Position numbers and translations under genes: made by a program
Shown: positions 12,334-63,359 of the stretch, one piece after another
Layout: the number at the start of each line of letters is the position of its first letter
How positions within the stretch are numbered: the first letter of the stretch is position 1
NCBI GenBank assembly: GCA_018402075.1
Contig: JAGYJP010000002.1
Span: 248,001-312,000, forward strand
Source of the DNA: Candidatus Nanopelagicales bacterium
Lineage (GTDB): Bacteria > Actinomycetota > Actinomycetes > S36-B12
DNA: 64,000 bases
Reading direction: 5' to 3'
The notes under the pieces: generated by a model
Seen by the model: the letters and a program-made list of their open reading frames with translations, nothing else
What the model was told of the DNA's origin: nothing
Database searches by the model: none

Positions 12334-12339
12334 ACTCTA
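12334..12339 (-). promoter_or_regulatory. Leaderless -10 box of pduO
   Basis: TAGAGT on the minus strand, then six bases, then the pduO ATG. No Shine-Dalgarno sequence separates box and start. Part of a window-wide pattern. Confidence 0.55.
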
Positions 12340-12365
12340 TCGGCAATCGACCTCCTTGGCTCACC

Positions 12366-12371
12366 TACGAT
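12366..12371 (+). promoter_or_regulatory. Leaderless -10 box of murA
   Basis: TACGAT, six bases, then GTG at 12378. This box supports the GTG over the ATG at 12330, because the shorter product begins where homologous MurA proteins begin. Confidence 0.6.
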
Positions 12372-12377
12372 GCGCAG

Positions 12378-13631
12378 GTGGATGTTTTCCGAGTGACGGG
12401 CGGGGCCCGGCTGGAGGGCAGAGTTGAAGTTCCCGGTGCTAAGAACTCGGTCTTGAAGTTGATGGCAGCAACACTTCTGGCCCCCGGAAAATCAATTCTG
12501 ACAAACGTCCCAAATATCGAAGATGTTGCCATCATGGCGGAGTTGTTGCGCAGGTTGGGTTGCCAGGTTGAGCAAAGCGGGGACCGAGTATCCATCACGG
12601 TGCCGGTAAGCCCTGACCATAGAGCGGATTATGACCTTGTGAGAAAAATGCGCGCCTCCATTTGTGTTCTGGGTCCGTTAATTGCACGCTGTGGTGCTGC
12701 CGATGTCGCTGTCCCGGGTGGGGACAATATTGGTTCACGCGGACTGGATATGCACGTGGAAGGTCTGCGAAAACTAGGTGTAGAAATTCATAACGAACAC
12801 GGCTACCTTCTCGCCGAAGCTCAACAACTTACGGGTGCCCACATTGTGTTGGACTTTCCCAGTGTGGGTGCAACCGAAACTTTACTCATGGCCGCCGTTA
12901 CGGCTCAAGGTGCAACAGTTCTGGAGAATGTGGCACGGGAGCCAGAGATTGTGGATATCTGCCAAATGCTGGTGCACATGGGCGCATCTATAGATGGCAT
13001 CAGCACATCGTCTTTGACGATTCAAGGCGTGCCGGAATTGCATCCGGTGGAGCATCGTGTTGTCTCTGATCGAATTGTTGCTGGTACATGGGCGGTAGCC
13101 GCCGCTATGACTCGAGGCAGTATTACTGTCGTGGGCGTTTCACCCCAACACCTCGAAGTTCCATTAAGCAAACTGATCGCGGCAGGCGCTGACGTTATCT
13201 CAGGAGAGCAAGAATTCACCATCAGCATGTCTGAGAGACCAACATCAGTTGATATTGTCACGCTCCCATATCCAGGATTCCCAACAGATTTACAACCTCA
13301 GTTCATTGCCATGAACGCGATCGCAAGCGGAGCGGCGTTGGTCACTGAGAACCTCTTCGAGGCCAGATTTAGATTCGTCCAGGAACTCACGCGGCTTGGT
13401 GCTGATGTTCGCACCGATGGACACCATGCACTGATTCGAGGTAAATCCGAGTTATCGGGCGCACCTGTTGAGGCAACTGACATCAGGGCAGGCGCGGGAT
13501 TAGTCTTGGCGGGATTGGTCGCCCAAGGCGAAACATCCGTATATGGCGTCAGTCATATCGATCGAGGGTATGCAGGTTTTGTTGATGTACTCCAATCCCT
13601 TGGCGCTGAGATTTCTCGCGTTTCCGAATGA
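12378..13631 (+). CDS. murA: UDP-N-acetylglucosamine 1-carboxyvinyltransferase, Asp-type active site
   Basis: 417 residues. MurA adds enolpyruvate from PEP to UDP-GlcNAc, the first committed step of peptidoglycan synthesis. [13 protein letters not shown] carries the conserved Lys-Asn pair, and [11 protein letters not shown] and the ending [17 protein letters not shown] are family signatures. The loop residue that is Cys115 in Escherichia coli, the fosfomycin target, is Asp116 here ([10 protein letters not shown]), as in mycobacteria. The frame opens at ATG 12330, but the GTG at 12378 fits both the leaderless box and the family N-terminus (VDVFRVTGG). It is divergent from pduO. Confidence 0.95.
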
Positions 13632-13640
13632 GAGTTTGAG

Positions 13641-13680
13641 CGCGCGTTTTTTAGCGCAAAAGACGTAGCGCGCGTTTTTT
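13641..13680 (+). terminator. Possible murA terminator created by the tandem repeat
   Basis: The self-complementary CGCGCG of copy 1 (13641-13646) can pair with that of copy 2 (13669-13674), which is directly followed by six Ts. The loop is long (22 bases) but contains an inner GCGC pairing. This is inference from the pairing rules only. Confidence 0.4.
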
Positions 13681-13696
13681 AGCGCAAAAGACGTAG
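13641..13696. repeat. 28-bp perfect tandem repeat between murA and a convergent gene
   Basis: Two identical copies (13641-13668, 13669-13696) of a unit starting CGCGCGTTTTTTAGCGC; a third partial CGCGCG follows. The right copy encodes the last residues (ALRLLR and stop) of the minus-strand gene. The left copy repeats that coding end in another frame. Confidence 0.92.
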
Positions 13697-14002
13697 CGCG
13701 CGGGCTTCATCTGCGGGCCAAACCAGGACTTTAGGGCCATCCAAGGTGTGTGAAAGGTTTGCTTTGATTCCTTGGTCTTCGAGAGTTCGTCGAAGTATTT
13801 CGCCTTGAATGTAATCACCGGGGCTCGCGACACATACGAGAAGCCCATACTCGTCCTCCCGGCCGGCTCGCGCTGGTGCAGCAACCACCGATGACCCTCG
13901 GGAATATGCCCAACGCAGAACCAGCACCATGAGACCCACTCCAATGAGAGCCACGATTGGCCCAAAGACATAGGAGAAACTATTGGTGATTTGCACATCC
14001 AT
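13679..14002 (-). CDS. Small membrane-anchored protein with DUF2007-like C-terminal domain
   Basis: About 107 residues. One N-terminal membrane helix (about residues 11-30, VFGPIVALIGVGLMVLVLRW), a short linker, then a small alpha/beta domain (LLVCVASPGDYIQGEILRRTLEDQGI to GPKVLVWPADEARALRLL). The pattern of a strand, a helix written as EILRRTLEDQGI and a closing VWPADEARA resembles DUF2007 putative signalling domains; this is a weak resemblance. The chosen ATG has no ribosome site, and the frame is open to 14083, so the start is uncertain. Convergent with murA. Function unknown. Confidence 0.6.
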   Translation of the reverse strand: MDVQITNSFSYVFGPIVALIGVGLMVLVLRWAYSRGSSVVAAPARAGREDEYGLLVCVASPGDYIQGEILRRTLEDQGIKANLSHTLDGPKVLVWPADEARALRLLR

Positions 14003-14071
14003 ATGGTGCCGTGGAAACGTGATGTACGCGACTTTTTCCCCGCAACTCCCTCTCGGGCCAGCGAGGTTCGC

Positions 14072-14077
14072 TACCCT
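14072..14077 (+). promoter_or_regulatory. Leaderless -10 box of ecm
   Basis: TACCCT, six bases, GTG at 14084. Using this start the protein begins [14 protein letters not shown], the place where actinobacterial homologues start, so the box also resolves the start codon. Confidence 0.6.
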
Positions 14078-14083
14078 TCCCAC

Positions 14084-16027
14084 GTGGCCGACTCACCGTG
14101 GATTATGCGTACCTATGCGGGGCATTCGACCGCGAAAGACTCCAACGCGCTTTTTCGGCGCAATCTGGCCAAGGGTCAAACGGGCTTATCGGTGGCATTT
14201 GACCTGCCCACGCAAACCGGCTACGACCCGGATGACCCCATGGCTCGAGGGGAGGTGGGCAAGGTAGGGGTTTCGGTGGCTTCGATCGCAGATATGCGCC
14301 AACTCTTTGACTCTATTGATCTTGGCACCATGAACACATCCATGACGATTAATGCAACCGCCGTTTGGCTCTATGCCCTCTACATAGCTGTTGCCGATGA
14401 ACAAGGTGTGGACCGAGCGGAACTCTCCGGAACCACCCAAAATGACATAATTAAGGAGTATCTGTCGAGGGGAACCTATGTTTTCCCACCGGCACCGTCA
14501 TTGTCACTAGCCACGGACCTAGTGGCATTTTCGGTGGAAAACACGCCTAAATGGAATCCGATCAATATTTGTAGTTATCACCTTCAAGAAGCTGGGGCAA
14601 CCCCGGTCCAGGAAGTTGCCTTCGCATTGAGTACCGCCGTTGCCGTACTCGACTCAGCACGTGTCAAAACAGATGTTGAATTCGATCGTGTAGTTTCGCG
14701 GATTTCCTTTTTTGTCAATTCAGGCGTGCGATTTATTGAAGAAATGTGCAAAATGAAGGCATTCGGCCGATTGTGGAATCAATTACTTATAGATCGCTAT
14801 GGAGTAACAGATCCAAAATCTCGCCGATTCCGATACGGAGTTCAAGTTAATTCATTGGGGCTGACCGAAGAACAGCCGGAGAATAATGTTCAGAGGATCA
14901 TGCTTGAGATGCTGGCCGTTACTTTGTCCAAGGATGCCCGTGCACGCGCGGTGCAACTGCCCGCATGGAATGAAGCCATGGGATTACCGCGACCTTGGGA
15001 TCAGCAGTGGTCACTGCGTATGCAACAAGTGCTCGCATTAGAGAGTGACATTCTTGAATACGAAGATATTTTTGCGGGCTCAACCGTCATTGAGAACAAA
15101 GTTGAAGAACTCATGGCAGCGATTCAATCTGAATTTGAGCGCATTGAAGAATTAGGAGGAGTTGTACCTACACTTGAATCGGGTTATCTTAAGAGTTCAC
15201 TGGTTGCTTCGCATGCAATTCGTCGTTCAGCAATTGAATCTGGGGAACTTCCCATAGTGGGAGTGAATATTCATACGACAACAGAGGTGAGTCCCTTGAT
15301 GGACTCTGTGGAGTCCAATATTTTTGTGGTTGATGAATCAGTGGAAGGTGATCGAGTTCGAGAGATTCACAATTGGAAGCAGACCCGGGATGCGAATCAA
15401 GTCGCCAATGCCTTAACCGAATTGACTCGTGCTGCAGAGGCTGGCGAGAATCTGGTTCCTGCCAGTATTGTTGCAGCAAGGGCTGGCGTTACGACTGGAG
15501 AGTGGGCCGAAGCTCTTCGCACCATTTACGGTGAGTATCGAGCTCCCACTGGTGTGATCGAATCAATATCCACTGATACCGACGCGATTAGAGTTGTTCG
15601 AGGGCGCGTTCATGCACTTGCTGAAGAGAGAGGCGCGCCACTAAGAATGCTTGTTGGCAAGCCGGGCTTGGACGGTCATTCCAACGGAGCAGAACAAATA
15701 GCGGTACGTGCCAGAGACTGTGGATTCGAAGTGATCTATCAGGGCATTCGGCTTAGGCCAGAGGAGATAGTTTCTGCAGCGGTAGCAGAGGATGTCGATG
15801 TCATCGGTCTCTCGATTCTCTCAGGATCGCATCGAACCCTTGTGGCTCAAGTCTTGGCGGGACTGGAAGCTTCTGGCGTCTCGGAAATACCTGTTGTCGT
15901 AGGTGGCATCATCCCCGATGACGATGCAGAGTGGCTTCATGAGCAGGGTGTTCGGGCTGTTTTTACGCCTAAGAACTTTGACACAACAGCAATCATGTCT
16001 GAGATTGTGGCGTTGCTGGAATCATGA
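14084..16027 (+). CDS. ecm: Ethylmalonyl-CoA mutase (MeaA-type, coenzyme B12)
   Basis: 647 residues. N-terminal catalytic barrel with [32 protein letters not shown] and [19 protein letters not shown]-terminal cobalamin domain (about from residue 510) with the base-off motif [15 protein letters not shown] and VVGGIIP. The single-chain architecture and near-verbatim agreement with Streptomyces MeaA mark it as the ethylmalonyl-CoA to methylsuccinyl-CoA mutase rather than the two-subunit methylmalonyl-CoA mutase. Nearby ccr makes its substrate; pduO and meaB supply and protect the cofactor. The ORF extends upstream to 13991, but GTG 14084 fits homologues and the -10 box. It overlaps nucS by four bases. 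Confidence 0.88.
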
Positions 16028-16689
16028 GGCTGCTCGTTGCTGAATGCACAGTGACGTATGTGGGGCGCCTCGATGCCCACCTGCCTCGCGCCACGAGATT
16101 AATTATGTTCAAGTCGGACGGCTCAGTTCTGATTCACTCCGATGGCGGGTCTTACAAACCACTTAACTGGATGAGTCCGCCGTGTACAGTGCGTGAGGAT
16201 CCCGAAGTGTCAGAGTTTGTGGTTACCAATAAGTCGGGGGAGATACTCACCATTGAAGTCCATGAAGTGCACAGCGACCAGTCGCATGAACTTGGCATAG
16301 ATCCAGGTCTTATCAAAGATGGAGTGGAGGCGCATCTGCAGAAGCTTCTTGCCGAGAATCTTGCACCCCTGGGCGATGGCTACACACTCGTGCGTCGGGA
16401 ATACCCGACGGCTATTGGCCCAGTAGATATTCTTTGTAAAGGCGCTCAAGGTGAGACCGTGGCCGTTGAGATTAAACGCAGGGGAGAAATAGATGGAGTT
16501 GAACAGCTCACAAGATATTTGGAATTGCTCAATAGGGACCCACTCATTGCACCCGTCCGAGGTGTCTTTGCCGCTCAGGAGATAAAGCCTCAGGCTCGAA
16601 CTCTGGCTTTGGACCGGGGAATTAGTTGCGTCACTCTGGATTACGAAGCCTTGAAGGGAACCGACGATAGCTCACTTCGCTTGTTCTAA
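16024..16689 (+). CDS. nucS: Mismatch-specific endonuclease NucS/EndoMS
   Basis: 221 residues. NucS cuts both strands at G-T, G-G and T-T mismatches and replaces MutS/MutL repair in most Actinobacteria. The RecB-like nuclease core is visible as GPVDILCK (Asp) and VAVEIKRRG (Glu and Lys). The N-terminal dimerisation domain contains [19 protein letters not shown]. The last residues, SLRLF, are the clamp-binding tail used for activation by the DNA polymerase sliding clamp. Its ATG overlaps the ecm stop (ATGA), so it is co-translated with a metabolic gene, an arrangement worth noting for a mutation-rate gene. Confidence 0.95.
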
Positions 16690-16695
16690 TGCGAT

Positions 16696-16725
16696 TTGCC
16701 ATTGGAATAAGCACAATTACATAAT
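16696..16725 (+). promoter_or_regulatory. Possible promoter of the dehydrogenase gene
   Basis: TTGCCA (16696-16701), an 18-base spacer and CATAAT (16720-16725) precede the gene at 16782. Unlike the leaderless genes, this one keeps a ribosome site (AAGGAAG). Motif-based only. Confidence 0.4.
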
Positions 16726-16781
16726 CATTTGGTGGCAAAGATTCATTACACAACCCAGACACGAAGGAAGCGGGCGGCGAA

Positions 16782-18545: not shown

Positions 18546-18572
18546 AAGTTAACCAGCGTGCCAAGGAGTGAC

Positions 18573-18857
18573 ATGGGGCGGAAGAATCGTCGGGCTGAAC
18601 CGGCTCCGCGACCCAGTGTTGGTGGGAACACAACCACCGAAACTCATCTTGATGGTGAGTGGCTTGTTCGCAAATTAACGGGGTCTGCTTCGACCAAAAT
18701 ATACAGATGTCCCGGGTGCGATCATGAAATACGTCCCGCGACGCCGCATATCGTGGCCTGGCCCGCTGACATTCCGCAGGGAGCAGATGAACGTCGCCAT
18801 TGGCACACGCCTTGCTGGAATAACAGGCGTAATCGAGGGCCAAAGGGTCGCGCATGA
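18573..18857 (+). CDS. Small actinobacterial protein with CxxC...HxxxC zinc-finger-like motif
   Basis: 94 basic residues. YRCPGCDHEI followed about 35 residues later by HWHTPCW gives a plausible zinc-binding set (two Cys, His, Cys). Similar short proteins, sometimes labelled ATP/GTP-binding without evidence, are common beside alpha/beta hydrolase genes in actinomycetes. The ATG follows AAGGAG by four bases. The stop overlaps the next start by four bases (ATGA). Function unknown; an RNA or protein binding role is possible. Confidence 0.75.
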   Translation: MGRKNRRAEPAPRPSVGGNTTTETHLDGEWLVRKLTGSASTKIYRCPGCDHEIRPATPHIVAWPADIPQGADERRHWHTPCWNNRRNRGPKGRA

Positions 18858-21453: not shown

Positions 21454-21459
21454 GCCCCA

Positions 21460-21465
21460 ATGGTA
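21460..21465 (-). promoter_or_regulatory. Leaderless -10 box of the OatA-like gene
   Basis: TACCAT on the minus strand, six bases, then the ATG at 21453. No ribosome site. Confidence 0.5.
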
Positions 21466-21483
21466 AGTGGTCTGCTGGCAGAG

Positions 21484-29369: not shown

Positions 29370-31426
29370 GCCGAAGGCCCAGCCTTTGGCGAATACACAA
29401 ATTGAGATGTAATGCGGCTCGATATTCGGGCGATGTGCGCCACATTTTCATATGGATTCAAACGTACAAAAGTATGCGGCCCCCACCGCCAACTTGAATC
29501 GGTAAGTTCTTCGCGGACAGAAAAATCAGAATCCCAGTCCAAGCCGAGTGCAGGCATATTCCAATGCACCGTGGAGGAATGTTCGTGATACGGATCCAAG
29601 GTGCAGACCACGAGCACGATATTGGAATGATCCTGTTTTGAATAGGCGATGATGTCTGGGGAATCCGTAGCGTGAAAACGAAGTGACCGTAAGGAATGTA
29701 ACGCTGAGTTTTCGCTTCGGATTCGGTTCAATTCCGTGAGGTAAGGGGCTAGTGTTCGTCCTTTCTCATGTGCCAATTGCCAGTCCCGGGGTCTGTATTC
29801 AAATTTTTCGGAATCGAGATACTCCTCGCTACCAGGGCGTAATGAGACATGTTCAAAGAGCTCGAAGCCACTATAGATTCCATAGGTGGGAGAGAGAGTT
29901 GCTGCCAAAGTTGCCCGAATGGCAAATGCCGCGGGCATTCCTGATTGCAAGTATTCGTGCAAAATATCAGGTGTGTTTGTGAATAAATTGGGTCGCATAT
30001 AGGCGGACATGGGCCCTGCTAGTTCAGTGAAATATTCCTCGAGATCACTCTTGCTTGTCTTCCATGTGAAGTAGGTGTAACTCTGTTGGAAGCCTTGTTC
30101 CGCTAGTGCTCGCATCATGGGTGCACGAGTGAACGCCTCCGCCAAGAAAATCACCCGGGGGTGCTTGGCATTTATGGAATGAATAAGCCGATTCCATACC
30201 CAGACTGGTTTGGTGTGTGGATTGTCAACTCTAAATATCTCAACTCCGAGGTCGATCCAGTGCTGCACCACTCTTTCGACTTCAGCGTATAAACCTTCCG
30301 GATCATTATCAAAATTGAGCGGATAAATGTCCTGGTATTTCTTGGGTGGGTTCTCTGCGTACGCGATGGATCCGTCCGCACGAGTTGTAAACCACTCTGG
30401 ATGATCCTTAACCCATGGGTGATCGGGGGCCGCCTGCAAGGCAAGGTCCAAAGCGATCTCGAGTCCTTCTTTGCGTGCGGCGATCAAGAACTTTGTGAAA
30501 TCACTCACTGTTCCAAGATCAGGATGAATGCAGTCATGGCCACCGTCCTTGGAGCCAATTGCCCACGGTGAGCCAGGGTCTTGTGGGCCTGCAATGAGAG
30601 TGTTATTGGGGCCCTTGCGATCCATTTCGCCAATTGGATGAATTGGTGGCAGATAAATGACATCGAAACCCATCGCGGCGATACCCGGTAACCGTTGTGC
30701 CGCGGTGGCAAATGTGCCGGAGCGCAAGGGACTCAGGGACGCGCCTTCACTTCTTGGAAAAAACTCGTACCATGCCCCGATGAGTGCGCGCGGTCTTTCA
30801 ACAAGCAAGGGCCAGGGCCCAGACTCCGTGGGTGATTGGCGGATTGGATTGTGTTGAACAATTCCCATAATGGATGCGTCAGTGGCGGCTGCAAGTCGCA
30901 CACTCGCAGGCAGGGTTGTGTTGGAGACGGTCGTGATCGCGGACTTGATTACTAGCCGCTGTTTTGAGGAAAGTGTTGGCTGATTAGCGATCAACTGCAG
31001 AATCTGGGCGCCCTCGGTCAGTTCAAGGTCGGTATCGAGGTTCGCTGGAATTTTGATACGAGCTCGTGCGCACCAGGTTTCCCATGGGTTCCCCCATGCC
31101 GTGATGATGAAGTTCCATGAACCTTCTTTATCGGGTTGGAAAAGAGCTTCATAGCGATCAGAGTCATAGCGATCAGAGTCATAGCGATCAGAGTCATGGC
31201 CGGTCTGCATGGGAAATGGGCCGAATTCTCGACCGGCCGGATCGCTGAACCGAATATCTACGCTGAGGGAGTCATGCCCCTCGCGAAATGCCGTCACACT
31301 AAAGGGAACAACCTCACCCGTCACGGCGGCAGCAGGATATTTTCCGCAGGCCACCACGGGGAATACATCCGTGAGCGTGAATCTTTGGAAGCGGGGTGGG
31401 TCAACCGTGAGGGGACGCGGAGACAT
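29366..31426 (-). CDS. glgE: Alpha-1,4-glucan:maltose-1-phosphate maltosyltransferase (GlgE)
   Basis: About 686 residues of GH13_3. GlgE extends alpha-1,4-glucan with maltose from maltose 1-phosphate. Signatures: DVFPVVACGKYPA, YLPPIHPIG, EIFRVDNPHTKP with the nucleophile Asp, FLAEAFTRAP with the acid/base Glu, and SYTYFTWK. The N-terminal beta domain carries a perfect triple DSDRY repeat (about residues 78-92). Start: ATG 31426; a TTG at 31450 lies six bases after a TAGTGC box and is an alternative. No TreS, Mak or clear GlgM lies in the window, so the maltose 1-phosphate source is elsewhere. Confidence 0.95.
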   Translation of the reverse strand: MSPRPLTVDPPRFQRFTLTDVFPVVACGKYPAAAVTGEVVPFSVTAFREGHDSLSVDIRFSDPAGREFGPFPMQTGHDSDRYDSDRYDSDRYEALFQPDKEGSWNFIITAWGNPWETWCARARIKIPANLDTDLELTEGAQILQLIANQPTLSSKQRLVIKSAITTVSNTTLPASVRLAAATDASIMGIVQHNPIRQSPTESGPWPLLVERPRALIGAWYEFFPRSEGASLSPLRSGTFATAAQRLPGIAAMGFDVIYLPPIHPIGEMDRKGPNNTLIAGPQDPGSPWAIGSKDGGHDCIHPDLGTVSDFTKFLIAARKEGLEIALDLALQAAPDHPWVKDHPEWFTTRADGSIAYAENPPKKYQDIYPLNFDNDPEGLYAEVERVVQHWIDLGVEIFRVDNPHTKPVWVWNRLIHSINAKHPRVIFLAEAFTRAPMMRALAEQGFQQSYTYFTWKTSKSDLEEYFTELAGPMSAYMRPNLFTNTPDILHEYLQSGMPAAFAIRATLAATLSPTYGIYSGFELFEHVSLRPGSEEYLDSEKFEYRPRDWQLAHEKGRTLAPYLTELNRIRSENSALHSLRSLRFHATDSPDIIAYSKQDHSNIVLVVCTLDPYHEHSSTVHWNMPALGLDWDSDFSVREELTDSSWRWGPHTFVRLNPYENVAHIARISSRITSQFVYSPKAGPSA
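31151..31195 (-). repeat. Perfect 15-bp repeat x3 inside glgE
   Basis: Three identical adjacent 15-base units (31151-31165, 31166-31180, 31181-31195) encode DSDRY three times in frame. Perfect identity implies recent expansion. Confidence 0.95.
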
Positions 31427-31506
31427 AGAGCCGAGGGTATCGTTGATCAATGGACGGCACTAGGTCTTTTCATGTATACGTTTGCATAAAGGTCTGCCCT
31501 GCCCGA

Positions 31507-31512
31507 TAGGTT
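31507..31512 (+). promoter_or_regulatory. Leaderless -10 box of glgP
   Basis: TAGGTT, six bases, GTG at 31519, within the 92-base gap between divergent glgE and glgP. Confidence 0.55.
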
Positions 31513-31518
31513 TATGCC

Positions 31519-34119
31519 GTGCGCGCATTGAAGAGAATCACCGTCCGAAATATTCTCCCACCCGCATTAGAGCCACTCAATGAACTTGCGCTGAATCTGC
31601 GGTGGAGTTGGGATTTAGAAACTCGTGAGATTTTCACGGCGATCGACCCTCAGTTGTGGAAACAAACTCATGATCCACTTCGACTATTGGGCGAGGTCTC
31701 TCAGTCCCGCCTTGAAGATCTAGCGACTGATAACGGATTTGTCCAATGGGTGCAGCAAAGGAGTGACAATCTTCAGCAGTACATCACTCACTCCAGTTGG
31801 TTCCAAGCTGAAGACCAAATCCAGGTACGAAAGATTTCTGGTATCGCATACTTTTCGCCGGAATTCGGCGTAACCGCTTCACTCCCGCAATACAGCGGAG
31901 GTCTGGGAATTCTCGCGGGGGATCATCTGAAGTCCGCAAGTGACCTTGGCATCCCGATCATTGGAATTGGTCTCTTTTATAAGTCTGGCTATTTTCGCCA
32001 AACACTCTCTCGAGATGCTTGGCAACTGGAGGCCTATCCGGTGTGCGCGCCTGAAGCAAGCCCCGTAGCTCTCCTACGCAATCACGACCACGCGCCAGTA
32101 ATTATTCGTGTCGGACTCCCTGACAACAGAGAATTGAGCGCGCAGGTCTGGATCGCGCAAGTCGGACGAGTACCACTGGTCCTCTTAGACACGGATATTG
32201 AAGTGAATGATCCTTCGGGTCGCGATATAACCGATCGACTTTATGGCGGAGGCGGCGAAACCCGACTTCAGCAAGAAATGCTCCTGGGAATTGGTGGCAT
32301 CCGCGCCTTGAGAGCGTTCTGTGCAACTACGGGAACACCTGAGCCCAATGTCTTTCACACCAATGAAGGCCATGCAGGATTTTTGGGAGTAGAGCGAATT
32401 CGGGAACTTGTCCAAAGTGATAGCGGACTCGATTTCAACCAAGCGTTAGAGGCAACACGAGCGAATACCGTGTTCACCACACACACTCCTGTTCCTGCGG
32501 GCATTGATCGTTTCCCTATCGATTTAATTGTTCGTTACTTCGGTGGCGACAATGCAGAAGCGGGAGTGCCTGTTGAAAAAATCCTTGAATTAGGCCAAGA
32601 AGGTTCGGGTGATTTTTTCAATATGGCCATGATGGGATTTCGTATAGCAGGTCGAGCCAACGGCGTCAGTCTTCTTCACGGTAAAGTCTCACGAGAGATG
32701 TTCGCCCACCTGTGGCCCGGTTTTGATCCTGCGGACGTCCCCATTACATCCATCACAAATGGTGTACATGCTCCAACGTGGGTCGCAGCAGAAATATTTG
32801 AATTAGTGAAAGACGAGTATGGAGTGATCGACCCAGACAATATATGGGAATATCTTGGCAACATTTCACTCCAAAGATTCTGGGAAACAAAGCGCTCCAT
32901 GCGTGAGGCTCTTGTTTTTATGTCGCGTGAGCGACTGCGTCAGGCATGGCTGGAGCGCGGGGCACATGAAGCCGAATTGCATTGGACAAATCACGTATTG
33001 GACCCGGATATTCTGACAATAGGTTTTGCTCGTCGAGTTCCTTCATACAAGCGACTGACTTTGATGCTCCGAGATCCGGACCGCCTTGGAGCTTTATTGA
33101 CACACCCTGATCATCCGATCCAAATAGTTATTGCGGGCAAAGCTCACCCCGCCGATGAGGGCGGAAAGGCACTCATTCAGCAGTTGGTGAGATTCGCTGA
33201 TTCCCCTGAAGTGCGCCATCGAATTGTCTTCCTGCCCAATTACGACATAGGAATGGCCACAACGTTGTACCCAGGCTGCGATATCTGGCTCAATAATCCG
33301 ATCCGTCCGCTTGAAGCAAGTGGAACATCCGGCATGAAGGCCGCGCTGAACGGCGCCCTGAACTTGTCCATCATGGATGGTTGGTGGGACGAGTGGTTCG
33401 ATGGCTCAAATGGCTGGTCTATTCCGACAGCACATTCATCGTTGGATTCAGAAGATCGTGACGACTTCGAGGCCAAAGCAATGTATGACCTCATCGAGAG
33501 TGATATCGCTCCGAAGTTCTATCGTCGAGGCGACGACCAGCTTCCCCAGGATTGGTTGGAAATGATCCGACACACATTACGAACTTTGGGACCAAAGGTG
33601 CTCGCCACTCGAATGGTGAAGGAATATACCGAAAGATTGTATGCACCAGCGTCATTGGCTGGCGAACAGCTGGCACAAGATAATTTCCGGGGTGCACGAG
33701 AGTTGGCACAATGGAAACATTACGTGCGTGACCAATGGCCGTACATATCAATCGAACATGTGGAATCAGACGCAGGAGGTTCCACTGTCTCACTAGGCGA
33801 CACTCTGCCAATTCTCTCCTATGTCTCATTAGCGGGGTTGAATCCCTCTGACGTCGTGATAGAGGCCGTTTATGGCCATGTTGACGATCTCGATGTCATA
33901 GAGAATGCACATCACGTGATACTCAAGCCTGAGTTGGAAGTTGGGAGCAATCGATGGAAGTACGTCGGTGAGATTCCCCTTCACCAGAGTGGGTCATTCG
34001 GTTATACGGTTCGAGTAGTTCCCTCCCACGCTCTCATGCCGAGCACGGCGGATTTGGGATTGCAAGTGTTGCCTGAAGTGAGCGCCAGTACAGGAGCACC
34101 TGACATACATTTACGTTGA
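31519..34119 (+). CDS. glgP: Alpha-glucan phosphorylase
   Basis: 866 residues of the short archaeal/actinobacterial GT35 type. It releases glucose 1-phosphate from alpha-1,4-glucan or maltodextrin. The PLP lysine is in ASGTSGMKAALNGALNLS. SPEFGVTASLPQYSGGLGILAGD, HTNEGHAGFLGVERIREL and TTHTPVPAGIDRF are conserved blocks. Unlike long GlgP, it begins with a DUF3417 region (RNILPPALEPLNELALNLRWSWD). GTG start. Divergent from glgE-glgB, so synthesis and breakdown genes share one intergenic control region. Its 3' end overlaps convergent glgX by nine bases. Confidence 0.95.
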   Translation: MRALKRITVRNILPPALEPLNELALNLRWSWDLETREIFTAIDPQLWKQTHDPLRLLGEVSQSRLEDLATDNGFVQWVQQRSDNLQQYITHSSWFQAEDQIQVRKISGIAYFSPEFGVTASLPQYSGGLGILAGDHLKSASDLGIPIIGIGLFYKSGYFRQTLSRDAWQLEAYPVCAPEASPVALLRNHDHAPVIIRVGLPDNRELSAQVWIAQVGRVPLVLLDTDIEVNDPSGRDITDRLYGGGGETRLQQEMLLGIGGIRALRAFCATTGTPEPNVFHTNEGHAGFLGVERIRELVQSDSGLDFNQALEATRANTVFTTHTPVPAGIDRFPIDLIVRYFGGDNAEAGVPVEKILELGQEGSGDFFNMAMMGFRIAGRANGVSLLHGKVSREMFAHLWPGFDPADVPITSITNGVHAPTWVAAEIFELVKDEYGVIDPDNIWEYLGNISLQRFWETKRSMREALVFMSRERLRQAWLERGAHEAELHWTNHVLDPDILTIGFARRVPSYKRLTLMLRDPDRLGALLTHPDHPIQIVIAGKAHPADEGGKALIQQLVRFADSPEVRHRIVFLPNYDIGMATTLYPGCDIWLNNPIRPLEASGTSGMKAALNGALNLSIMDGWWDEWFDGSNGWSIPTAHSSLDSEDRDDFEAKAMYDLIESDIAPKFYRRGDDQLPQDWLEMIRHTLRTLGPKVLATRMVKEYTERLYAPASLAGEQLAQDNFRGARELAQWKHYVRDQWPYISIEHVESDAGGSTVSLGDTLPILSYVSLAGLNPSDVVIEAVYGHVDDLDVIENAHHVILKPELEVGSNRWKYVGEIPLHQSGSFGYTVRVVPSHALMPSTADLGLQVLPEVSASTGAPDIHLR

Positions 34120-36228
34120 TGCACCGCGAGCCTTCATTACCAATGTGGACCGAGGGGTGATCATCACAGGCTGTCCCGCTATATACGAAGTTTCATGGGG
34201 CTTACCGTTTGTATGCGATGTGTCAAGAATTGGAATATACGAGTATCCGTCATAGGGGCCACCCGGCAAATAAAACTCGACTGGCTCACATCCTGCGTGG
34301 AAAATTGCTAAGAGGGCGTCACCGTGACTAGGTGAAATAAACATTCCAACGGTGGAAAGTGACTCAACGCCCCAGTCCTCGATTTCATGACCTCCCGGGC
34401 CGAACCACGCCAAGTCCTTTGGGCCACTCTCTGCATGCGGTAAACCCGTGAAAAACCCTGATGGGTGGATATGTCTCCAAGAAATGCGCACGTGATTCAG
34501 CGTTGCACATAAATCAACAAGATCCCAGTCAGATTGATTAAGTTCCCAACTCACCCAAGAAATTGAATTGTCTTGACAATAAGCGTTGTTGTTTCCGAGC
34601 TGTGTTCTGTGAAATTCATCGCCGGCTAGAAGCATGGGGACTCCACTGGACAGGTACATGGTTGCCAAGAAGTTTCGTACTTGGCGTGCTCGGGTCTCAA
34701 TGATCTCCGGGTCAGTCGTTGGGCCTTCTATTCCATAGTTACTTGAGCGATTGTTGTCCGTACCATCTCGATTATCTTCGAGGTTCGCCTGATTGTGTTT
34801 ATGGTTGTAACTGACTAAATCCCACAACGTGAAGCCATCGTGAGCAGTGACAAAGTTTATGTTTGTATACGGATCCACTGACTTTCCACCATGGATATCT
34901 TCGGAACCTGATAGGCGCCAACCGAGGTGAGCGATACCGGAATCACCTCGCCAAAAATCACGAACATCGTCCCTGTACCTGTCATTCCACTCACTCCACA
35001 AACTAGGAAAGGATCCAACGCGATAGCCGTCAGGTCCCACATCCCAAGGTTCGGCAACAAGTTTGACCTTTCTCAGCACTGGATCTTGCTGAACTGCATT
35101 GAGAAAAACTCCATGCATCTCGACATCTATTTCTCCACGCGCAAGGGCTGATGCGAGATCGAATCGGAATCCGTCCACGTGCATTTCGGTCACCCAATAA
35201 CGCAATGAATCCATAATGACTTGTAGCGCCTGAGGTAGCGACGCGTTGACCGAATTCCCACAACCAGTGAAGTCAATGTATTCGCCAGATTCACTAATTC
35301 GATAGAAATCAATATTGTTGATTCCTTTGAAGCACAGAAATGGTCCATGTGCCCCGCCTTCGGCGGTGTGGTTATACACAACGTCGAGAATTACCTCGAT
35401 CCCCGCGCGGTGAAGCTCTCGCACCATGAATTTGAAATCCTCGACTTCAGTTCCAGTTTGCGAAGCATATTGAGCATGCGGAGCGAAAAAGCCAATTGTG
35501 TTGTACCCCCAATAATTGGTCAGACCTGATTCCACAAGATGCCGCTCGCTGAGGAATGATTGAATCGGTAACAATTCAATTGCTGTCACACCTATGTGTC
35601 TTAGGTGCTCAATGAGTGCGGGTGCGGCTACACCCCGGAATGTTCCGCGCTCACTATCCGATACAGATGGATGTAGTTGAGTCAATCCCTTGACATGAGC
35701 TTCGTAAATCACGGTTTCAGCCCATGGGGTACTGGGAGGAGTGTCACCTTCCCAATCAAAATGGGATTCCGTCACAACGGAGTGCGGCACGAAATTCTTG
35801 TTATCGGTGGTCGAGATAGTGGATGGGTCTTCCAGAGAAAAGTCATAAATTGCGGGCGACTCAATGAGATTGCCTGCTATTCGTTTTGCGTATGGATCAA
35901 GCAGAAGTTTGTGTGGATTGAATCGCATGCCAGATTCAGGGTTCCATTCACCGGAAACGCGGAATCCATACCGTGAACCAATGGGTACATTGGGAACGAC
36001 TGCGTGATAAGTCCCTTGAACAAGTCGTGTCAATTCGGTGTGATGTTCGACAGTGCCCCCCCTGGAATCAGTGACCAAAAGACAGAACACGACAGACGTG
36101 GCCCGAGGGGCCCACAGTGAGACATTGACTGATCCGTCGGGGAGAGGTGTGACACCAAAGTTGTCCCATAATCCTCCTGGCGCCCTCACGGTGGAGACTT
36201 TACTTGCTCCACTTTCGGCTATGGCCAT
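34111..36228 (-). CDS. glgX: Glycogen debranching enzyme (isoamylase type)
   Basis: 705 residues of GH13_11 hydrolysing alpha-1,6 branches, usually short limit-dextrin stubs. CBM48-like N-terminus (VNVSLWAPRATSVVFCLL), LLPIQSFLSE, VVYNHTAEG, the nucleophile Asp in DGFRFDLASALAR, the acid/base Glu in LVAEPWDVG, and TAHDGFTLWDLVSYNHKHN. The segment ENNRD-like LEDNRDGTDNNRSSNYG is a family mark. The ATG follows TTAGAGG. Convergent with glgP, so glucan breakdown genes face each other. Confidence 0.95.
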   Translation of the reverse strand: MAIAESGASKVSTVRAPGGLWDNFGVTPLPDGSVNVSLWAPRATSVVFCLLVTDSRGGTVEHHTELTRLVQGTYHAVVPNVPIGSRYGFRVSGEWNPESGMRFNPHKLLLDPYAKRIAGNLIESPAIYDFSLEDPSTISTTDNKNFVPHSVVTESHFDWEGDTPPSTPWAETVIYEAHVKGLTQLHPSVSDSERGTFRGVAAPALIEHLRHIGVTAIELLPIQSFLSERHLVESGLTNYWGYNTIGFFAPHAQYASQTGTEVEDFKFMVRELHRAGIEVILDVVYNHTAEGGAHGPFLCFKGINNIDFYRISESGEYIDFTGCGNSVNASLPQALQVIMDSLRYWVTEMHVDGFRFDLASALARGEIDVEMHGVFLNAVQQDPVLRKVKLVAEPWDVGPDGYRVGSFPSLWSEWNDRYRDDVRDFWRGDSGIAHLGWRLSGSEDIHGGKSVDPYTNINFVTAHDGFTLWDLVSYNHKHNQANLEDNRDGTDNNRSSNYGIEGPTTDPEIIETRARQVRNFLATMYLSSGVPMLLAGDEFHRTQLGNNNAYCQDNSISWVSWELNQSDWDLVDLCATLNHVRISWRHIHPSGFFTGLPHAESGPKDLAWFGPGGHEIEDWGVESLSTVGMFISPSHGDALLAIFHAGCEPVEFYLPGGPYDGYSYIPILDTSHTNGKPHETSYIAGQPVMITPRSTLVMKARGAST

Positions 36229-41350: not shown

Positions 41351-41356
41351 ACAGTA
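41351..41356 (-). promoter_or_regulatory. Leaderless -10 box of the GH57 gene
   Basis: TACTGT on the minus strand, six bases, GTG at 41344. Within the 102-base divergent gap to etfB. Confidence 0.5.
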
Positions 41357-48838: not shown

Positions 48839-49138
48839 ATGTCATCTATTGACCGTGAGCAGGTAATTCACCTTGGACGATTAGCTCGGCTGGAATTATC
48901 TGATGTTGAGGTCACTCACTACACCGAACAGTTGGATCAAATATTGGGTGCAATAGCGCTGATTTCTCAGGTAGCGGCAGAGGATATTCCGCCTACGTCG
49001 CATCCGATCCCCATGACAAATGTATTCCGCGATGACATTCCTGTTTCAGGGCTAGAGAGGTCCGTGGTTGCTGAAGGCGCACCAGCATGGGAAGACGATC
49101 GTTTTCTTGTTCCACGAATTCTGGATGACCCAGCATGA
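48839..49138 (+). CDS. gatC: Aspartyl/glutamyl-tRNA amidotransferase subunit C
   Basis: 99 residues. GatC stabilises GatA and bridges to Gat[29 protein letters not shown] and [31 protein letters not shown] are family signatures. ATG 48839 is preferred over the GTG six bases upstream because it sits at the expected leaderless start. Overlaps gatA by four bases. Confidence 0.94.
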
Positions 49139-50652
49139 ATCAGAAAATCCACTCAATGGAGGTCGATCTCATTCGCCAGAGCGCTTCTACTTTAGCCAGT
49201 GCTATTGCCCAAGGTGATATCACCAGTGAACAAGTGACTGCTGCGCACTTGGATCGGATTGAACAGGTTGACTCTTCCGTGCATGCTTTCCTCCATGTCA
49301 ATCGAGAGCAATCGCTTGAACGTGCGCGTACTGTTGATCGGGGCATTGCCGATGGCAGCATTTCAAGCCCCTTGGCCGGCGTCCCCATTGCTTTGAAGGA
49401 TCTTCTCGCAACGAAAGGAGTTCCCACCACGTGTGGTTCACGAATTCTGGAAGGTTGGCGGCCACCGTATAACGCCACCATCGTCGATCGCCTTGAAGCT
49501 GCTGGCGTGGTCTCACTCGGGAAAACAAATATGGATGAATTCGCCATGGGTTCCTCCACCGAGCACAGCGGTTATGGACCAACTCGAAACCCTTGGGATT
49601 TGGAACGCATCCCAGGTGGGTCTGGCGGCGGGTCAGCGGCCGCTCTTGCAAGCTTTGAAGCACCGTTAGCAATTGGTACTGACACCGGCGGATCTATTCG
49701 ACAACCCGCTGCTGTGACGGGAACGGTGGGTGTTAAGCCGACATACGGTGGGGTATCACGATATGGAATCGTGGCGTTAGCTTCGTCACTGGATCAAGCA
49801 GGACCATGCGCCCGCGATGTCATGGATACTGCGCTTCTTCATTCGATCATCGCTGGATACGATCCACGCGACTCTACTTCTATTAATTCGGCAGTCCCAG
49901 ATGTCATTCGCGCTGCGCAATCAGCTGATGTACGCGGCATGAAAATTGGCGTCATCAAGCAACTGCAGGGCGAAGGATTCCAGCGGGGCGTGCTTGATCG
50001 ATTTAATGCTGCTCTCGACATCTTGGCAAGTCTGGGGGCTGAAATCATTGAAGTGTCATGTGAGCACTTCCAATACGCCCTGGGTGCCTATTACCTCATT
50101 CTTCCATCGGAGGCATCCAGTAACCTTGCACGTTTTGATGGAATGCGATTTGGAATACGTAAAGGCGATAATGGCGACAATTCTGTTGAACAAGTCATGA
50201 GTGCAACTCGTGAAGCAGGATTTGGTCCTGAAGTAAAGCGCCGAATAATGCTCGGCACTTATGCGCTGTCCAGTGGCTACTACGACGCCTACTACGGTCA
50301 GGCGCAAAAAATTCGCACGCTAATCACCCGCGATTTTGAGTCCGCATTCGCTCAAGTAGATGTCCTCGTTTCACCGACCGCACCCACGACGGCATTTAAA
50401 ATTGGGGAGAAGCTCGATGACCCGTTGGCCATGTATCTCAACGATATTGCCACGATCCCTGTCAACCTCGCAGGCAACTGTGCCATGTCTCTCCCCATCG
50501 GTTTGGCTTCAGAAGATGGCTTACCCGTTGGTTTTCAGATAATTGCCCCAGCCATGGCCGATGACCGTCTCTATCGTGTTGGGTCAGCCCTTGAAGGGGC
50601 ACTTGTTGACCAATGGGGCGGATTGCTTATTGAGGAGGCTCCTGCTTTATGA
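49135..50652 (+). CDS. gatA: Aspartyl/glutamyl-tRNA amidotransferase subunit A
   Basis: 505 residues of the amidase-signature family. The catalytic triad Lys ([14 protein letters not shown]), cis-Ser ([10 protein letters not shown] region) and Ser nucleophile ([12 protein letters not shown]) are present. GatA releases ammonia from Gln for transfer to Glu-tRNA(Gln) or Asp-tRNA(Asn). No Gln-tRNA synthetase is seen in the window, and most actinomycetes rely on this indirect path. ATGA overlaps at both ends. Confidence 0.96.
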
Positions 50653-53931: not shown

Positions 53932-53976
53932 ATGGCAAAAAAGTTTTCGGTAGTAGTTATTAGGCGCGTGGGCTAA
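53932..53976 (+). CDS. ilvB leader peptide
   Basis: Fourteen codons encoding MAKKFSVVVIRRVG with a Val-Val-Val-Ile run and another Val near the end. Such a branched-chain codon run before a terminator is the hallmark of an attenuation leader. Ribosome stalling when charged tRNA-Val or tRNA-Ile is scarce would alter folding of the downstream RNA. Confidence 0.75.
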   Translation: MAKKFSVVVIRRVG

Positions 53977-54028
53977 GCAGCACTCCTACGCGCAGCCCTC
54001 CGCAACCCACTTGGGTCGGGGGGTTTTT
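53964..54028 (+). promoter_or_regulatory. ilvB transcription attenuator with terminator
   Basis: Pause-type stem GCGCGT (53964-53969) with ACGCGC (53988-53993), alternative pairing GTGGG (53968-53972) with CCCAC (54006-54010), and a terminator stem around ACCCA-CT-TGGGT within 53996-54023, followed by TTTTT (54024-54028). The ribosome on the leader covers the first pairing region. Exact competing structures need folding. Confidence 0.6.
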
Positions 54029-54048
54029 CATTCACAAGAAATCAAAAT

Positions 54049-55854: not shown

Positions 55855-56378
55855 TGTCTCGACACACTTTGTCCGTTTTGGTCCAGGATCAACCGGGGGT
55901 CTTGGCAAGAGTTGCGAGCCTTTTCTCACGCCGCGGGTTCAACATTGAGTCACTCGCGGTCGGTCCCACAGAGGTCACTGATGTTTCTCGTATGACGATT
56001 GTGGTCAACGTGGAAGACCTCCCCCTCGAGCAGGTCACAAAACAACTGAATAAATTGATCAACGTGCTCAAGATTGTAGAACTGGAACCAGATCAATCAG
56101 TTCAGCGGGAAATTATGCTGGTCAAGGTTAAAGCAGACTTGGAGTCTCGTAGCCATATTTTGGAAACGGTCCAGCTTTTCAGAGCCAAAGTCGTTGATGT
56201 TGCACACGATGCGGTCACAATTGAGGCAACAGGTGCCCATGACAAGCTCATTGCTCTCCTGAGGGTTCTAGAGCCATATGGAATAAGGGAGCTTGTTCAA
56301 TCCGGAATGGTAGCCATGGGTAGGGGTTCACGCTCCATTAGTGACCGTACGCTTAGATCCTCAGATAAATCAGCATAA
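55854..56378 (+). CDS. ilvN: Acetolactate synthase, small regulatory subunit
   Basis: 174 residues. N-terminal ACT domain with HTLSVLVQDQPGVLARVASLFSRRGFNIESLAVG, then a C-terminal ALS_ss domain (REIMLVKVKADLE to GIRELVQSGMVAMGRG). It activates IlvB and imposes valine feedback inhibition. The length is that of the long form. Same operon as ilvB and ilvC. Confidence 0.96.
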   Translation: MSRHTLSVLVQDQPGVLARVASLFSRRGFNIESLAVGPTEVTDVSRMTIVVNVEDLPLEQVTKQLNKLINVLKIVELEPDQSVQREIMLVKVKADLESRSHILETVQLFRAKVVDVAHDAVTIEATGAHDKLIALLRVLEPYGIRELVQSGMVAMGRGSRSISDRTLRSSDKSA

Positions 56379-56428
56379 CTAGTCCCGCGACATTGTCCCC
56401 CATTCAATTAGCACCCCGATAGGTATAA

Positions 56429-57469
<1,041 letters not shown>

Positions 57470-57537
57470 CTAACCCGCACCTAACTCAGAACACCCTTGT
57501 GAGTCTCACCGCGTGATCCGCAGGATGTCCTCAGCAA

Positions 57538-57543
57538 TAGAAT
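57538..57543 (+). promoter_or_regulatory. Leaderless -10 box of serA
   Basis: TAGAAT, six bases, GTG at 57550; no ribosome site. Identical box to that of gatCAB. Confidence 0.6.
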
Positions 57544-57549
57544 GGTCGG

Positions 57550-59130: not shown

Positions 59131-59178
59131 AAATTGTCATTGGCAATTCGTTGCAGAAATATTCGTGGTTCTTGTGTG

Positions 59179-61094
<1,916 letters not shown>

Positions 61095-61103
61095 AGTGAC
61101 TTC

Positions 61104-61109
61104 AGGGTA
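61104..61109 (-). promoter_or_regulatory. -10 box of the leuA leader
   Basis: TACCCT on the minus strand. Expected transcription start is near 61097, three bases before the leader ATG. Confidence 0.45.
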
Positions 61110-61163
61110 GCACTGATCCCATCTGAAAAATATCCCGACGTGTTCACCGGTGGTGAGCCTGAC

Positions 61164-61169
61164 TAATCT
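61164..61169 (+). promoter_or_regulatory. Leaderless -10 box of leuB
   Basis: TAATCT, six bases, ATG at 61176; no ribosome site. Confidence 0.55.
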
Positions 61170-61175
61170 GCGCCT

Positions 61176-62234
61176 ATGTCCCGAAGTTATTCGATTGCGC
61201 TCATCCCAGGAGACGGTATCGGCACCGAAGTCGTAGCCGAGGCAGTCAAGGTTCTCCAGGCTGTTGGCCAAATGGCTGGCTGTGAATTTGTCACCACCGA
61301 CTACGACCTCGGCGCACGCCGCTACAACGCGACTGGCGAATTACTTCCAGAATCAGTTATTGAGGAATTGAGGACCCATGATGCAATTCTGCTAGGCGCC
61401 ATAGGTGATCCATCCGTTCCCCCTGGGGTACTGGAGCGCGGTGTTCTTTTGCCATTGCGTTTCGTTATGGATCATCACGTGAACTTGCGTCCGGTCAAAC
61501 TTTATCCGGGTGTAGTTGGCCCGCTCTCAGGCAAGACTCCCTCCGATATTGATTTTGTCGTTTGTCGCGAGGGGACAGAAGGTCCTTATGTGGGTGCGGG
61601 GGGAGTTTTGCGCAAAGGAACGCCACATGAAGTTGCTGTCGAAGAAAGTCTGAACACTGCATTTGGAGTTGAGCGAATTGTGCGGGATGCATTTGACCGG
61701 GCAAGCAAACGTCGGAAGCAGGTGACCCTTGTTCATAAAACCAATGTCCTGATAAACGCCGGTAGCTTATGGAAAAGAACCTTCGACAGAATTGCACGTG
61801 AATACCCTGATATTTCAGTCGACTACCAGCATGTTGACGCTGCCGCTATGTATTTCATAACTAACCCTGAGCGTTTTGACGTAGTAGTAACCGATAATTT
61901 GTTTGGTGACATCCTCACCGATATTGGAGCAGCGATAGTTGGCGGAATTGGTTTGGCGGCCAGCGGAAATATTGACCCGAGTCGCAGTAATCCAAGCATG
62001 TTTGAACCCGTCCATGGATCCGCACCTGATATCGCTGGCCAAGGAAAAGCAGATCCAACGGCAACGATTATGTCGCTTGCCATGCTGTTGGATCATATCG
62101 GCGAATCCCACGCAGCATCATGGGTTGAGCAGGCGGTAGCCCAGGATTTGGCCACGAGGCCTCCCGATGCACGCGGTACCTCGGCCATTGGTGATTCCAT
62201 TGTTGCTGCCATGTTGCCTTTCGCCAAGGAGTAG
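61176..62234 (+). CDS. leuB: 3-isopropylmalate dehydrogenase
   Basis: 352 residues. [17 protein letters not shown] at the NAD site, [13 protein letters not shown], and the metal-binding [20 protein letters not shown]. It oxidatively decarboxylates 3-isopropylmalate. Compared with tartrate dehydrogenases, the length and the [10 protein letters not shown] context fit LeuB. Its stop TAG is part of the -10 box of ilvE. leuC and leuD are not in the window. Confidence 0.95.
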
Positions 62235-62237
62235 ATT
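62232..62237 (+). promoter_or_regulatory. Leaderless -10 box of ilvE
   Basis: TAGATT, six bases, ATG at 62244. The TAG is also the leuB stop codon, so ilvE has its own promoter inside a nine-base gap. Confidence 0.55.
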
Positions 62238-62243
62238 TGCGCC

Positions 62244-63359
62244 ATGCAACATGCAGACAGACTGGTTATTTCTGATTCCACTTCGGGAGCAGCCCTCGCG
62301 AGCGATACAGATCGTATGGCTATTGTGGAAAACCCGGGATTCGGTAAATACTTCACCGATCACATGGTGACAATTGATTGGTCGAGCACTGATGGCTGGC
62401 ACGATGCTGAACTCAAGGATTATGGCCCCCTTCTGATGGATCCAGCGACCAATGTGTTGCATTACGGACAGGCGATTTTCGAAGGCCTCAAGGCTTATCG
62501 ACACCCTGACGGGAGCATTCAAACTTTTCGTCCCTATGAAAATGCCCAAAGGTTTGCCCGATCCGCCCGCCGCCTTGCCATGGCGGAATTGCCTGCCGAG
62601 TTATTTGTTGCCAGTCTGGAATCCCTTGTCAATTCTGATCAGGTATGGGTGCCTTCGGGGCGTGAAAAGTCTTTGTATCTGCGCCCGTTCATGGTCTCTA
62701 CCGAAGTGGGCTTGGGTGTCAGACCCGCGAACTCATATAAATACATTCTTATTGCTTCACCCGCAGGAGCGTATTTCTCAGGAGGAATCACACCCGTGAG
62801 CGTGTGGATCTCTGACGACTACGTCAGGGCGTCGCCGGGAGGGACCGGCGAGGCAAAGTGTGCGGGAAACTATGCAGCTTCCTTGCTTGCCCAAGCTGAG
62901 GCCGCCGCCCATGGGTGCGATCAAGTTGTATGGCTAGATGCAATTGGCCGCGAAAAGATTGAAGAGATGGGGGGCATGAACCTCTATTTCGTTTACGGCC
63001 AAGGTGATTCAGCTCGAATCATGACCCCGTTATTGACTGGCTCCTTACTACCCGGAGTAACTCGCGATTCTTTGCTCACCGTTGCTGCTGATCTTGGAAT
63101 CGCCGCGTCAGAGGGTGAGATCACTGTTGCCGAGCTCCGAGTAGGCTGCGAATCCGGTGAGATCACCGAAGTATTTGCGTGCGGAACAGCTGCCGTGATT
63201 ACTCCTGTGGGGAAAGTGAAATCCAGGACTAATGGTGAGTTTGTCGTCGGTCAAGGAACCACCGGTGCAGTAACCCTGCGTCTTAGGGATGCTCTCCTTG
63301 ATATCCAATCAGGAACTACTCCTGATCGTCACAACTGGATGCATACACTCGTCAATTAG
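62244..63359 (+). CDS. ilvE: Branched-chain amino acid aminotransferase
   Basis: 371 residues of fold-type IV PLP enzymes. The PLP lysine is in [39 protein letters not shown] and [13 protein letters not shown] are conserved. It makes the last transamination for Leu, Ile and Val. An N-terminal extension of about 25 residues before [12 protein letters not shown] is usual for the long actinobacterial type. Lies between leuB and cimA. Confidence 0.95.

What the first reader, a model, noticed from the sequence alone, without database searches (positions are those of the whole stretch)
12334..62244. Recurring leaderless start signature: TAnnnT, exactly six bases, then ATG or GTG
At least twelve starts share the same layout and lack a ribosome site: pduO (TAGAGT), murA (TACGAT), ecm (TACCCT), the OatA-like gene (TACCAT), meaB (TAACCT), glgP (TAGGTT), the GH57 gene (TACTGT), gatC (TAGAAT), the ilvB leader peptide (TATTGT), serA (TAGAAT), leuB (TAATCT) and ilvE (TAGATT). 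The constant six-base spacing puts the transcription start on the first base of the start codon. The rule independently chose starts that match homologues for murA and ecm. Genes inside operons keep Shine-Dalgarno sites.
Basis: partly seen in the sequence, partly recalled or inferred. Interest (0 to 1): 0.7.

Follow-up and report, generated by a model that had tools for sequence, protein, structure and literature searches.

The report
Leaderless gene starts in a Nanopelagicales actinobacterium
Many genes in this actinobacterium appear to begin their messenger RNA directly at the start codon, with the promoter box six or seven bases before it; the signal is real, but it is the leaderless-gene design already known from actinobacteria.

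Summary
All twelve starts have TANNNT, six bases, then ATG/GTG. A count that assumes no start choice peaks sharply at spacing six: 10 of 52 called genes in the window (mean 0.61 at spacings 8-30) and 52 of 309 in 400 kb of a relative, G001 (mean 3.91). Spacing seven is a smaller second peak (16 of 309), so 'exactly six' is too strict. G001 is collinear with the window (77% identity); there all twelve boxes keep T1, A2, T6, the spacing and an ATG/GTG, whereas 16 of 42 other non-coding TANNNT survive. TTG shows no signal; Shine-Dalgarno motifs are rare at these starts (3 of 80). Best reading: -10 boxes that put the transcription start on the first base of the start codon, in about 20% of genes here, near the published actinobacterial average (19.2%, PMC3160421). 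ilvE is doubtful: its TAG is leuB's stop codon. gatC is leaderless-like in 30 of 48 non-Streptomycetaceae loci, but in 26 of 30 Streptomycetaceae loci a box lies 43-55 nt upstream with a Shine-Dalgarno motif. A new example of a known kind; 5' ends are unmeasured.

The parts
12334..12339 (-). -10 box TAGAGT, six bases before the ATG (12327) of cobalamin adenosyltransferase (pduO-like)
   Evidence: PF01923; identical in G001
12366..12371 (+). -10 box TACGAT, six bases before the GTG (12378) of murA
   Evidence: PF00275; box at spacing 6 or 7 near the aligned start in 6 of 10 relatives examined
14072..14077 (+). -10 box TACCCT before GTG 14084 of the methylmalonyl-CoA mutase family gene (ecm)
   Evidence: PF01642; TAACCT in G001, where its TAA is an in-frame stop 4 codons upstream
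21460..21465 (-). -10 box TACCAT before ATG 21453 of an OatA-like acyltransferase
   Evidence: PF01757
24770..24775 (+). -10 box TAACCT before GTG 24782 of meaB
   Evidence: PF03308; of 8 relatives examined only G001 shares it
   Evidence: PF11896; TACTCT in G001
31507..31512 (+). -10 box TAGGTT before GTG 31519 of glycogen phosphorylase (glgP)
   Evidence: PF00343 and PF11897
   Evidence: PF02922; box kept in G001
41351..41356 (-). -10 box TACTGT before GTG 41344 of the GH57 gene
   Evidence: PF03065
48827..48832 (+). -10 box TAGAAT before ATG 48839 of gatC
   Evidence: PF02686
53920..53925 (+). -10 box TATTGT before ATG 53932 of the ilvB leader ORF
   Evidence: identical in G001 (GTG start there)
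53932..53976 (+). ilvB leader ORF MAKKFSVVVIRRVG, followed by two predicted hairpins and a T run
   Evidence: related leader ORFs upstream of ilvB in relatives
57538..57543 (+). -10 box TAGAAT before GTG 57550 of serA
   Evidence: PF02826 and PF00389; box in 4 of 11 relatives examined
61164..61169 (+). -10 box TAATCT before ATG 61176 of leuB
   Evidence: PF00180; box at spacing 6 or 7 in 9 of 20 relatives (7 at the aligned start)
62232..62237 (+). TAGATT before ATG 62244 of ilvE; its TAG is the stop codon of leuB, so the assignment is doubtful
   Evidence: PF01063

Best explanation
These are housekeeping (sigma-70 type) promoters whose -10 hexamer TANNNT sits 6, sometimes 7, bases before the start codon, so that RNA polymerase begins on the A or G of the ATG/GTG and the mRNA has no 5' leader. 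The ribosome then starts at the 5'-terminal RTG without a Shine-Dalgarno site. Shown here: box, spacing, restriction to ATG/GTG, rarity of SD motifs, conservation. Inferred: the transcription start position, the sigma factor, and the mode of translation (from published work on mycobacteria and corynebacteria).
For: Spacing peak at 6 with a smaller one at 7 and background counts at 5 and 8 (3 and 1 in G001, background 3.91). No peak at internal RTG and no TTG or CTG signal. T1, A2 and T6 kept in 12 of 12 boxes in G001 against 16 of 42 other non-coding and 119 of 500 coding TANNNT (5 unaligned of each set aside); Fisher p about 1e-4 against the non-coding ones. Inside the boxes, positions 3, 4 and 5 are kept in 8, 11 and 11 of 12, and the six spacer bases in 7, 8, 10, 7, 8 and 7 of 12. 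SD motif at 3 of 80 such starts. Commoner at first genes than in tight tandem in G001 (39 of 135 against 15 of 106, p 0.008). At spacing 7 the base before RTG is a pyrimidine in 16 of 18, against 149 of 241 at other starts (p 0.02), as expected if the purine of RTG is the initiating base. No conserved -35 word and no TGN extension (0 of 80), as reported for M. tuberculosis, where 7% had TGN (PMC3898074, passages). gatC: box at spacing 6-8 in 30 of 48 non-Streptomycetaceae loci (24 of 48 at 6 or 7); 0 of 30 Streptomycetaceae loci with gatC found, of which 26 have a box 43-55 nt upstream plus an SD motif and 4 an SD motif only. A box that moves away where an SD leader is present behaves like a promoter.
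Against: No RNA data. The G001 sample is about 20% of one genome, and genes came from a home-made caller with unverified starts. Shuffle background is 5.6 against 52, so about one in ten individual calls could be chance. Excess at 6+7 is lower in other samples: 7.2% of 65 genes in G004, 4.8% of 42 in G017, none in 41 Streptomyces genes (small samples). 117 of 241 other G001 genes also lack an SD motif by my test, so lack of SD alone is weak evidence. The three bases just before the box are also well kept (11 of 12 each), and two boxes (pduO, murA) lie in a nearly identical stretch, so they add little to the conservation test. At spacing 6 the pyrimidine at -1 (42 of 62) is hardly above other starts (149 of 241). 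The Streptomycetaceae gatC loci are close kin, not independent. ilvE has another reading.
Confidence: 0.93

Rival explanations
1. The box is a real -10 element, but the transcripts start elsewhere nearby or from a second upstream promoter, so the mRNAs carry leaders and are translated by other means.
For: No 5' ends are mapped; spacing-7 starts could leave one leader base; the C. glutamicum ilvL start codon is described as one nucleotide from the transcription start (PMC11857589, passages).
Against: Sharp 6/7 spacing with background counts at 5 and 8, pyrimidine at -1 for spacing 7, few SD motifs, ATG/GTG only.
Confidence: 0.05
2. For ilvE alone: the TAGATT is chance overlap with leuB's TAG stop codon, and ilvE is translated from the leuB mRNA through its upstream AAGGAG or by coupling.
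For: TAG at 62232-62234 is leuB's stop and ilvE starts 9 nt later; AAGGAG just upstream; by eye, ilvE of G004 and G002 has SD-like sequence before its ATG and no box.
Against: The T at position 6 is also kept in G001 (TAGGTT); AAGGAG lies 12 bases from the ATG, longer than usual SD spacing (recalled); G017 has TAGTTT six bases before an ATG near the aligned ilvE start.
Confidence: 0.5
3. Chance: TANNNT is short and the reader chose starts that fit it.
For: Start choice was free; several candidate starts exist per gene (132 RTG candidates for 52 genes).
Confidence: 0.01

Closest known systems
TA-led (leaderless) genes of Actinobacteria and Deinococcus-Thermus, Zheng et al. 2011, PMC3160421 (passages read)
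   Same: [quoted passage not shown] 19.2% of genes on average in 86 actinobacterial genomes
   Different: In the passages seen, medium-GC groups (Aquificae, Chloroflexi) show TAtaaT; this 52-54% GC actinobacterium keeps the degenerate TANNNT, with G at position 3 in 42 of 80 boxes and T there in 5. Nanopelagicales is not named in the passages I saw.
Leaderless transcripts of mycobacteria, Cortes 2013 PMC3898074 and Shell 2015 PMC4633059 (passages read)
   Same: TANNNT -10, no conserved -35, purine start usually preceded by C; ATG/GTG at the 5' end, TTG and CTG ineffective there
   Different: There 5' ends and translation were measured; here only sequence
ilvBNC leader peptide and attenuator of Corynebacterium glutamicum, PMC11857589 (passages read)
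   Same: Short leader ORF with a valine run and RR, start codon one nucleotide from the transcription start, reported without a ribosome binding site (title of its reference 4)
   Different: The peptide differs; the hairpins here are a prediction for one sequence

Membership tests
Bacterial leaderless genes | -10 box at fixed 6-7 nt before the start codon, above chance | tested here: met
Bacterial leaderless genes | Start codon ATG or GTG only | tested here: met
   TTG 0 genes at spacing 6 in window and G001 (37 and 241 candidates); CTG 0 and 1
Bacterial leaderless genes | No Shine-Dalgarno site at the start | tested here: met
   motif in 1 of 12 called window starts (spacing 6 or 7) and 2 of 68 in G001, no higher than at internal RTG
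Bacterial leaderless genes | Box and spacing kept in a relative more than other TANNNT | tested here: met
   12 of 12 in G001 against 16 of 42 other non-coding
Bacterial leaderless genes | Primary 5' end on the first base of the start codon | not testable with these tools
   no RNA data
Bacterial leaderless genes | Translation from the 5'-terminal RTG without SD | not testable with these tools
   inferred from PMC4633059 (M. smegmatis reporters, passages)
Actinobacterial ilvB leader-peptide attenuator | Branched-chain-rich short ORF upstream of ilvB, kept in relatives | tested here: met
   first 20 of the 30 loci: leaderless ORF with a branched-chain run in 6 of 20, such an ORF without the box at 6 or 7 in 9 of 20, none found in 5 of 20
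Actinobacterial ilvB leader-peptide attenuator | Terminator/antiterminator hairpins | tested here: inconclusive
   two hairpins and a T run, z -2.38, one sequence; no Rfam match at gathering score

The most novel reading that the evidence does not exclude
In Actinobacteria a gene can switch between leaderless and leadered expression while keeping the same promoter element: at gatC the box abuts the start codon in Nanopelagicales, acI-like, Nocardioides and micrococcal loci but stands about 45 nt upstream, with a Shine-Dalgarno motif near the start, in Streptomycetaceae. If the boxes are homologous, single loci record the gain or loss of a 5' leader, and the direction of the switch and its effect on expression become testable gene by gene.
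Probability: 0.4. Interest if true: 0.4.

Novelty: new member of a known kind. Interest (0 to 1): 0.2.

Why it matters
It extends a well-described leaderless design to a lineage for which three paper searches returned nothing on the subject, and it gives a practical rule for choosing start codons there: TANNNT, 6 or 7 bases, ATG or GTG. The box-plus-conservation test needs only two genomes, and the gatC comparison offers a case in which a leader may have been gained or lost.

Tried and rejected
Counting TANNNT-N6-RTG over the whole sequence without regard to genes was uninformative. A -35 element was sought by TTG-type words at all positions over 80 sequences and by per-position information over 52: no conserved word; at most 0.15 bit at positions -38 to -31, which I did not pursue. 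The idea that position 3 of the box is often G because TAG at spacing 6 is an in-frame stop: TAG or TAA in 43 of 62 at spacing 6 and 13 of 18 at spacing 7, so no support. Other genomes: G004 4 at spacing 6 and 2 at 7 of 65 genes; G017 2 and 0 of 42; Streptomyces G018 0 and 0 of 41; Mycolicibacter G021 5 and 4 of 62; E. coli K-12, 50 kb, 1 and 1 of 30 against 0.65 background. Pooled loci, excess at 6+7: low-GC Nanopelagicales-like 11.4% of 126 genes, nearer Nanopelagicales 12.9% of 43, nocardioid and micrococcal 9.6% of 180, six Streptomycetaceae loci 13.3% of 68, mycobacterial and kin 17.7% of 92; these pools hold many copies of the same region. I did not settle whether the TAG before ilvE in L085 is leuB's stop. 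In one search I left out L195-L199 (partial or weaker ecm-like matches), L211 (second serA match in G017) and L220-L223 (weaker meaB matches); two of the four ecm boxes counted lie 12 and 17 codons before the aligned start. In one search, 11 of the 38 'other' loci have a box further upstream (7 with SD motif), 3 SD only, 3 neither. No Rfam match and no tRNA in the window.
Full report
Where the window comes from. The gatA product (window 49135-50652) is 93% identical to that of a Candidatus Nanopelagicales MAG (L001, M30B76), and the window from base 71 onward is collinear with G001:C11:211207-274977. Over 63413 aligned positions identity is 77.0%. No whole genome is held for the window itself, so G001 served as the near relative and as the larger sample (400 kb).

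Checking the observation. All twelve listed starts have the stated layout. Because starts can be chosen to fit a motif, I asked for every called gene whether any in-frame ATG/GTG near its 5' end has TANNNT at each spacing from 0 to 30. In the window 10 of 52 genes have it at spacing 6 and 2 at 7, with a mean of 0.61 at 8-30; in G001 52 of 309 at 6 and 16 at 7, mean 3.91. Dinucleotide shuffles of the upstream bases give means of 1.05 and 5.58 at spacing 6 and maxima of 5 and 15 in 200 rounds. Internal in-frame RTG codons and TTG or CTG candidates show no peak. The excess at 6 and 7 is 20.7% of genes in the window and 19.5% in G001, but 7.2% in 80 kb of G004 and 4.8% in 80 kb of G017. The published average for Actinobacteria is 19.2%, range 2.3 to 29.8 (PMC3160421, passages).

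Independent test by conservation. In G001 all twelve boxes keep T1, A2 and T6, the spacing and an ATG or GTG (ATG became GTG at the ilvB leader). Six of the twelve boxes are identical; six differ at one inner base. Inner positions are kept in 8, 11 and 11 of 12; spacer positions in 7 to 10 of 12. Of other aligned TANNNT, 16 of 42 non-coding and 119 of 500 coding ones are kept. Of the 12 other TANNNT-N6-RTG strings, 5 keep the box and 3 of these also the RTG; all 5 lie in coding sequence. Two boxes (pduO, murA) lie in a nearly identical stretch, and the TA of ilvE is also a stop codon, so nine boxes carry most of the weight.

Anatomy. In window and G001 together, 80 boxes have G at position 3 in 42, no TGN extension (0 of 80) and no conserved -35 word; per-position information over 52 sequences is at most 0.15 bit between -38 and -31. 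SD motifs occur at 3 of 80 such starts, against 60 of 613 and 245 of 3892 internal RTG. Leaderless starts are commoner at first genes than in tight tandem in G001 (39 of 135 against 15 of 106, p 0.008), but tandem genes are far from all SD-led (38 of 106), and 117 of 241 other genes show no SD motif. At spacing 7 the base before RTG is a pyrimidine in 16 of 18 (149 of 241 at other starts, p 0.02), which fits initiation on the purine of RTG; at spacing 6 it is 42 of 62, hardly above other starts.

Relatives. leuB has the box at spacing 6 or 7 near the aligned start in 9 of 20 relatives, murA in 6 of 10, serA in 4 of 11, ecm in 4 of 7, meaB in 1 of 8. gatC is the most telling: the box stands at spacing 6-8 in 30 of 48 non-Streptomycetaceae loci (21 of 38 other Actinobacteria and 9 of 10 low-GC acI-like; 24 of 48 if only 6 and 7 are counted), and in 0 of 30 Streptomycetaceae loci with gatC found; 26 of these 30 have a box 43-55 nt upstream and an SD motif, the other 4 an SD motif only. 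That fits a promoter element better than a translation signal.

The ilvB leader. MAKKFSVVVIRRVG (53932-53976) has a leaderless-type start; G001 has MTLKSSVVVIRRVG at the same place. Of 20 ilvB loci, 6 have a leaderless ORF with a branched-chain run, 9 such an ORF without the box at 6 or 7, and in 5 none was found. Two predicted hairpins and a T run follow. This resembles the attenuator of C. glutamicum, whose leader start lies one nucleotide from the transcription start (PMC11857589, passages).

Weak points. ilvE starts 9 nt after leuB and the TAG of its box is leuB's stop codon; an AAGGAG lies upstream, and by eye G004 and G002 have SD-like ilvE starts. I rate ilvE at even odds. 5' ends are not measured. 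The gene caller is simple; it recovered 10 of the 11 listed genes at spacing 6.

Verdict. It is the leaderless design of Actinobacteria, in a lineage on which three searches found no paper about it, with spacing 6 as the main mode and 7 as a minor one.

Noticed in passing
window 53932-54045: Leaderless-type branched-chain leader ORF with two predicted hairpins and a T run before ilvB, resembling the C. glutamicum ilvBNC attenuator; no Rfam match at gathering score.
   Followed up: partly
gatC upstream regions in loci L001-L080: In 26 of 30 Streptomycetaceae loci a TANNNT-type box stands 43-55 nt before gatC with an SD motif near the ATG, whereas in 30 of 48 other loci it stands 6-8 bases before the start.
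   Followed up: partly
window 12298-12387: The stretch around the pduO start, shared with the divergent murA promoter, differs from G001 at only 2 of 90 bases although overall identity is 77%.
   Followed up: no
window 31426-31519 and 12327-12378: Two divergent pairs, glgE/glgP (92 bases apart) and pduO/murA (50 bases apart), in which both genes look leaderless.
   Followed up: partly
window 36189 and 36228, - strand: The CBM48/alpha-amylase gene has an upstream ATG at 36228, but a box kept in G001 at spacing 7 points to the GTG at 36189.
   Followed up: partly
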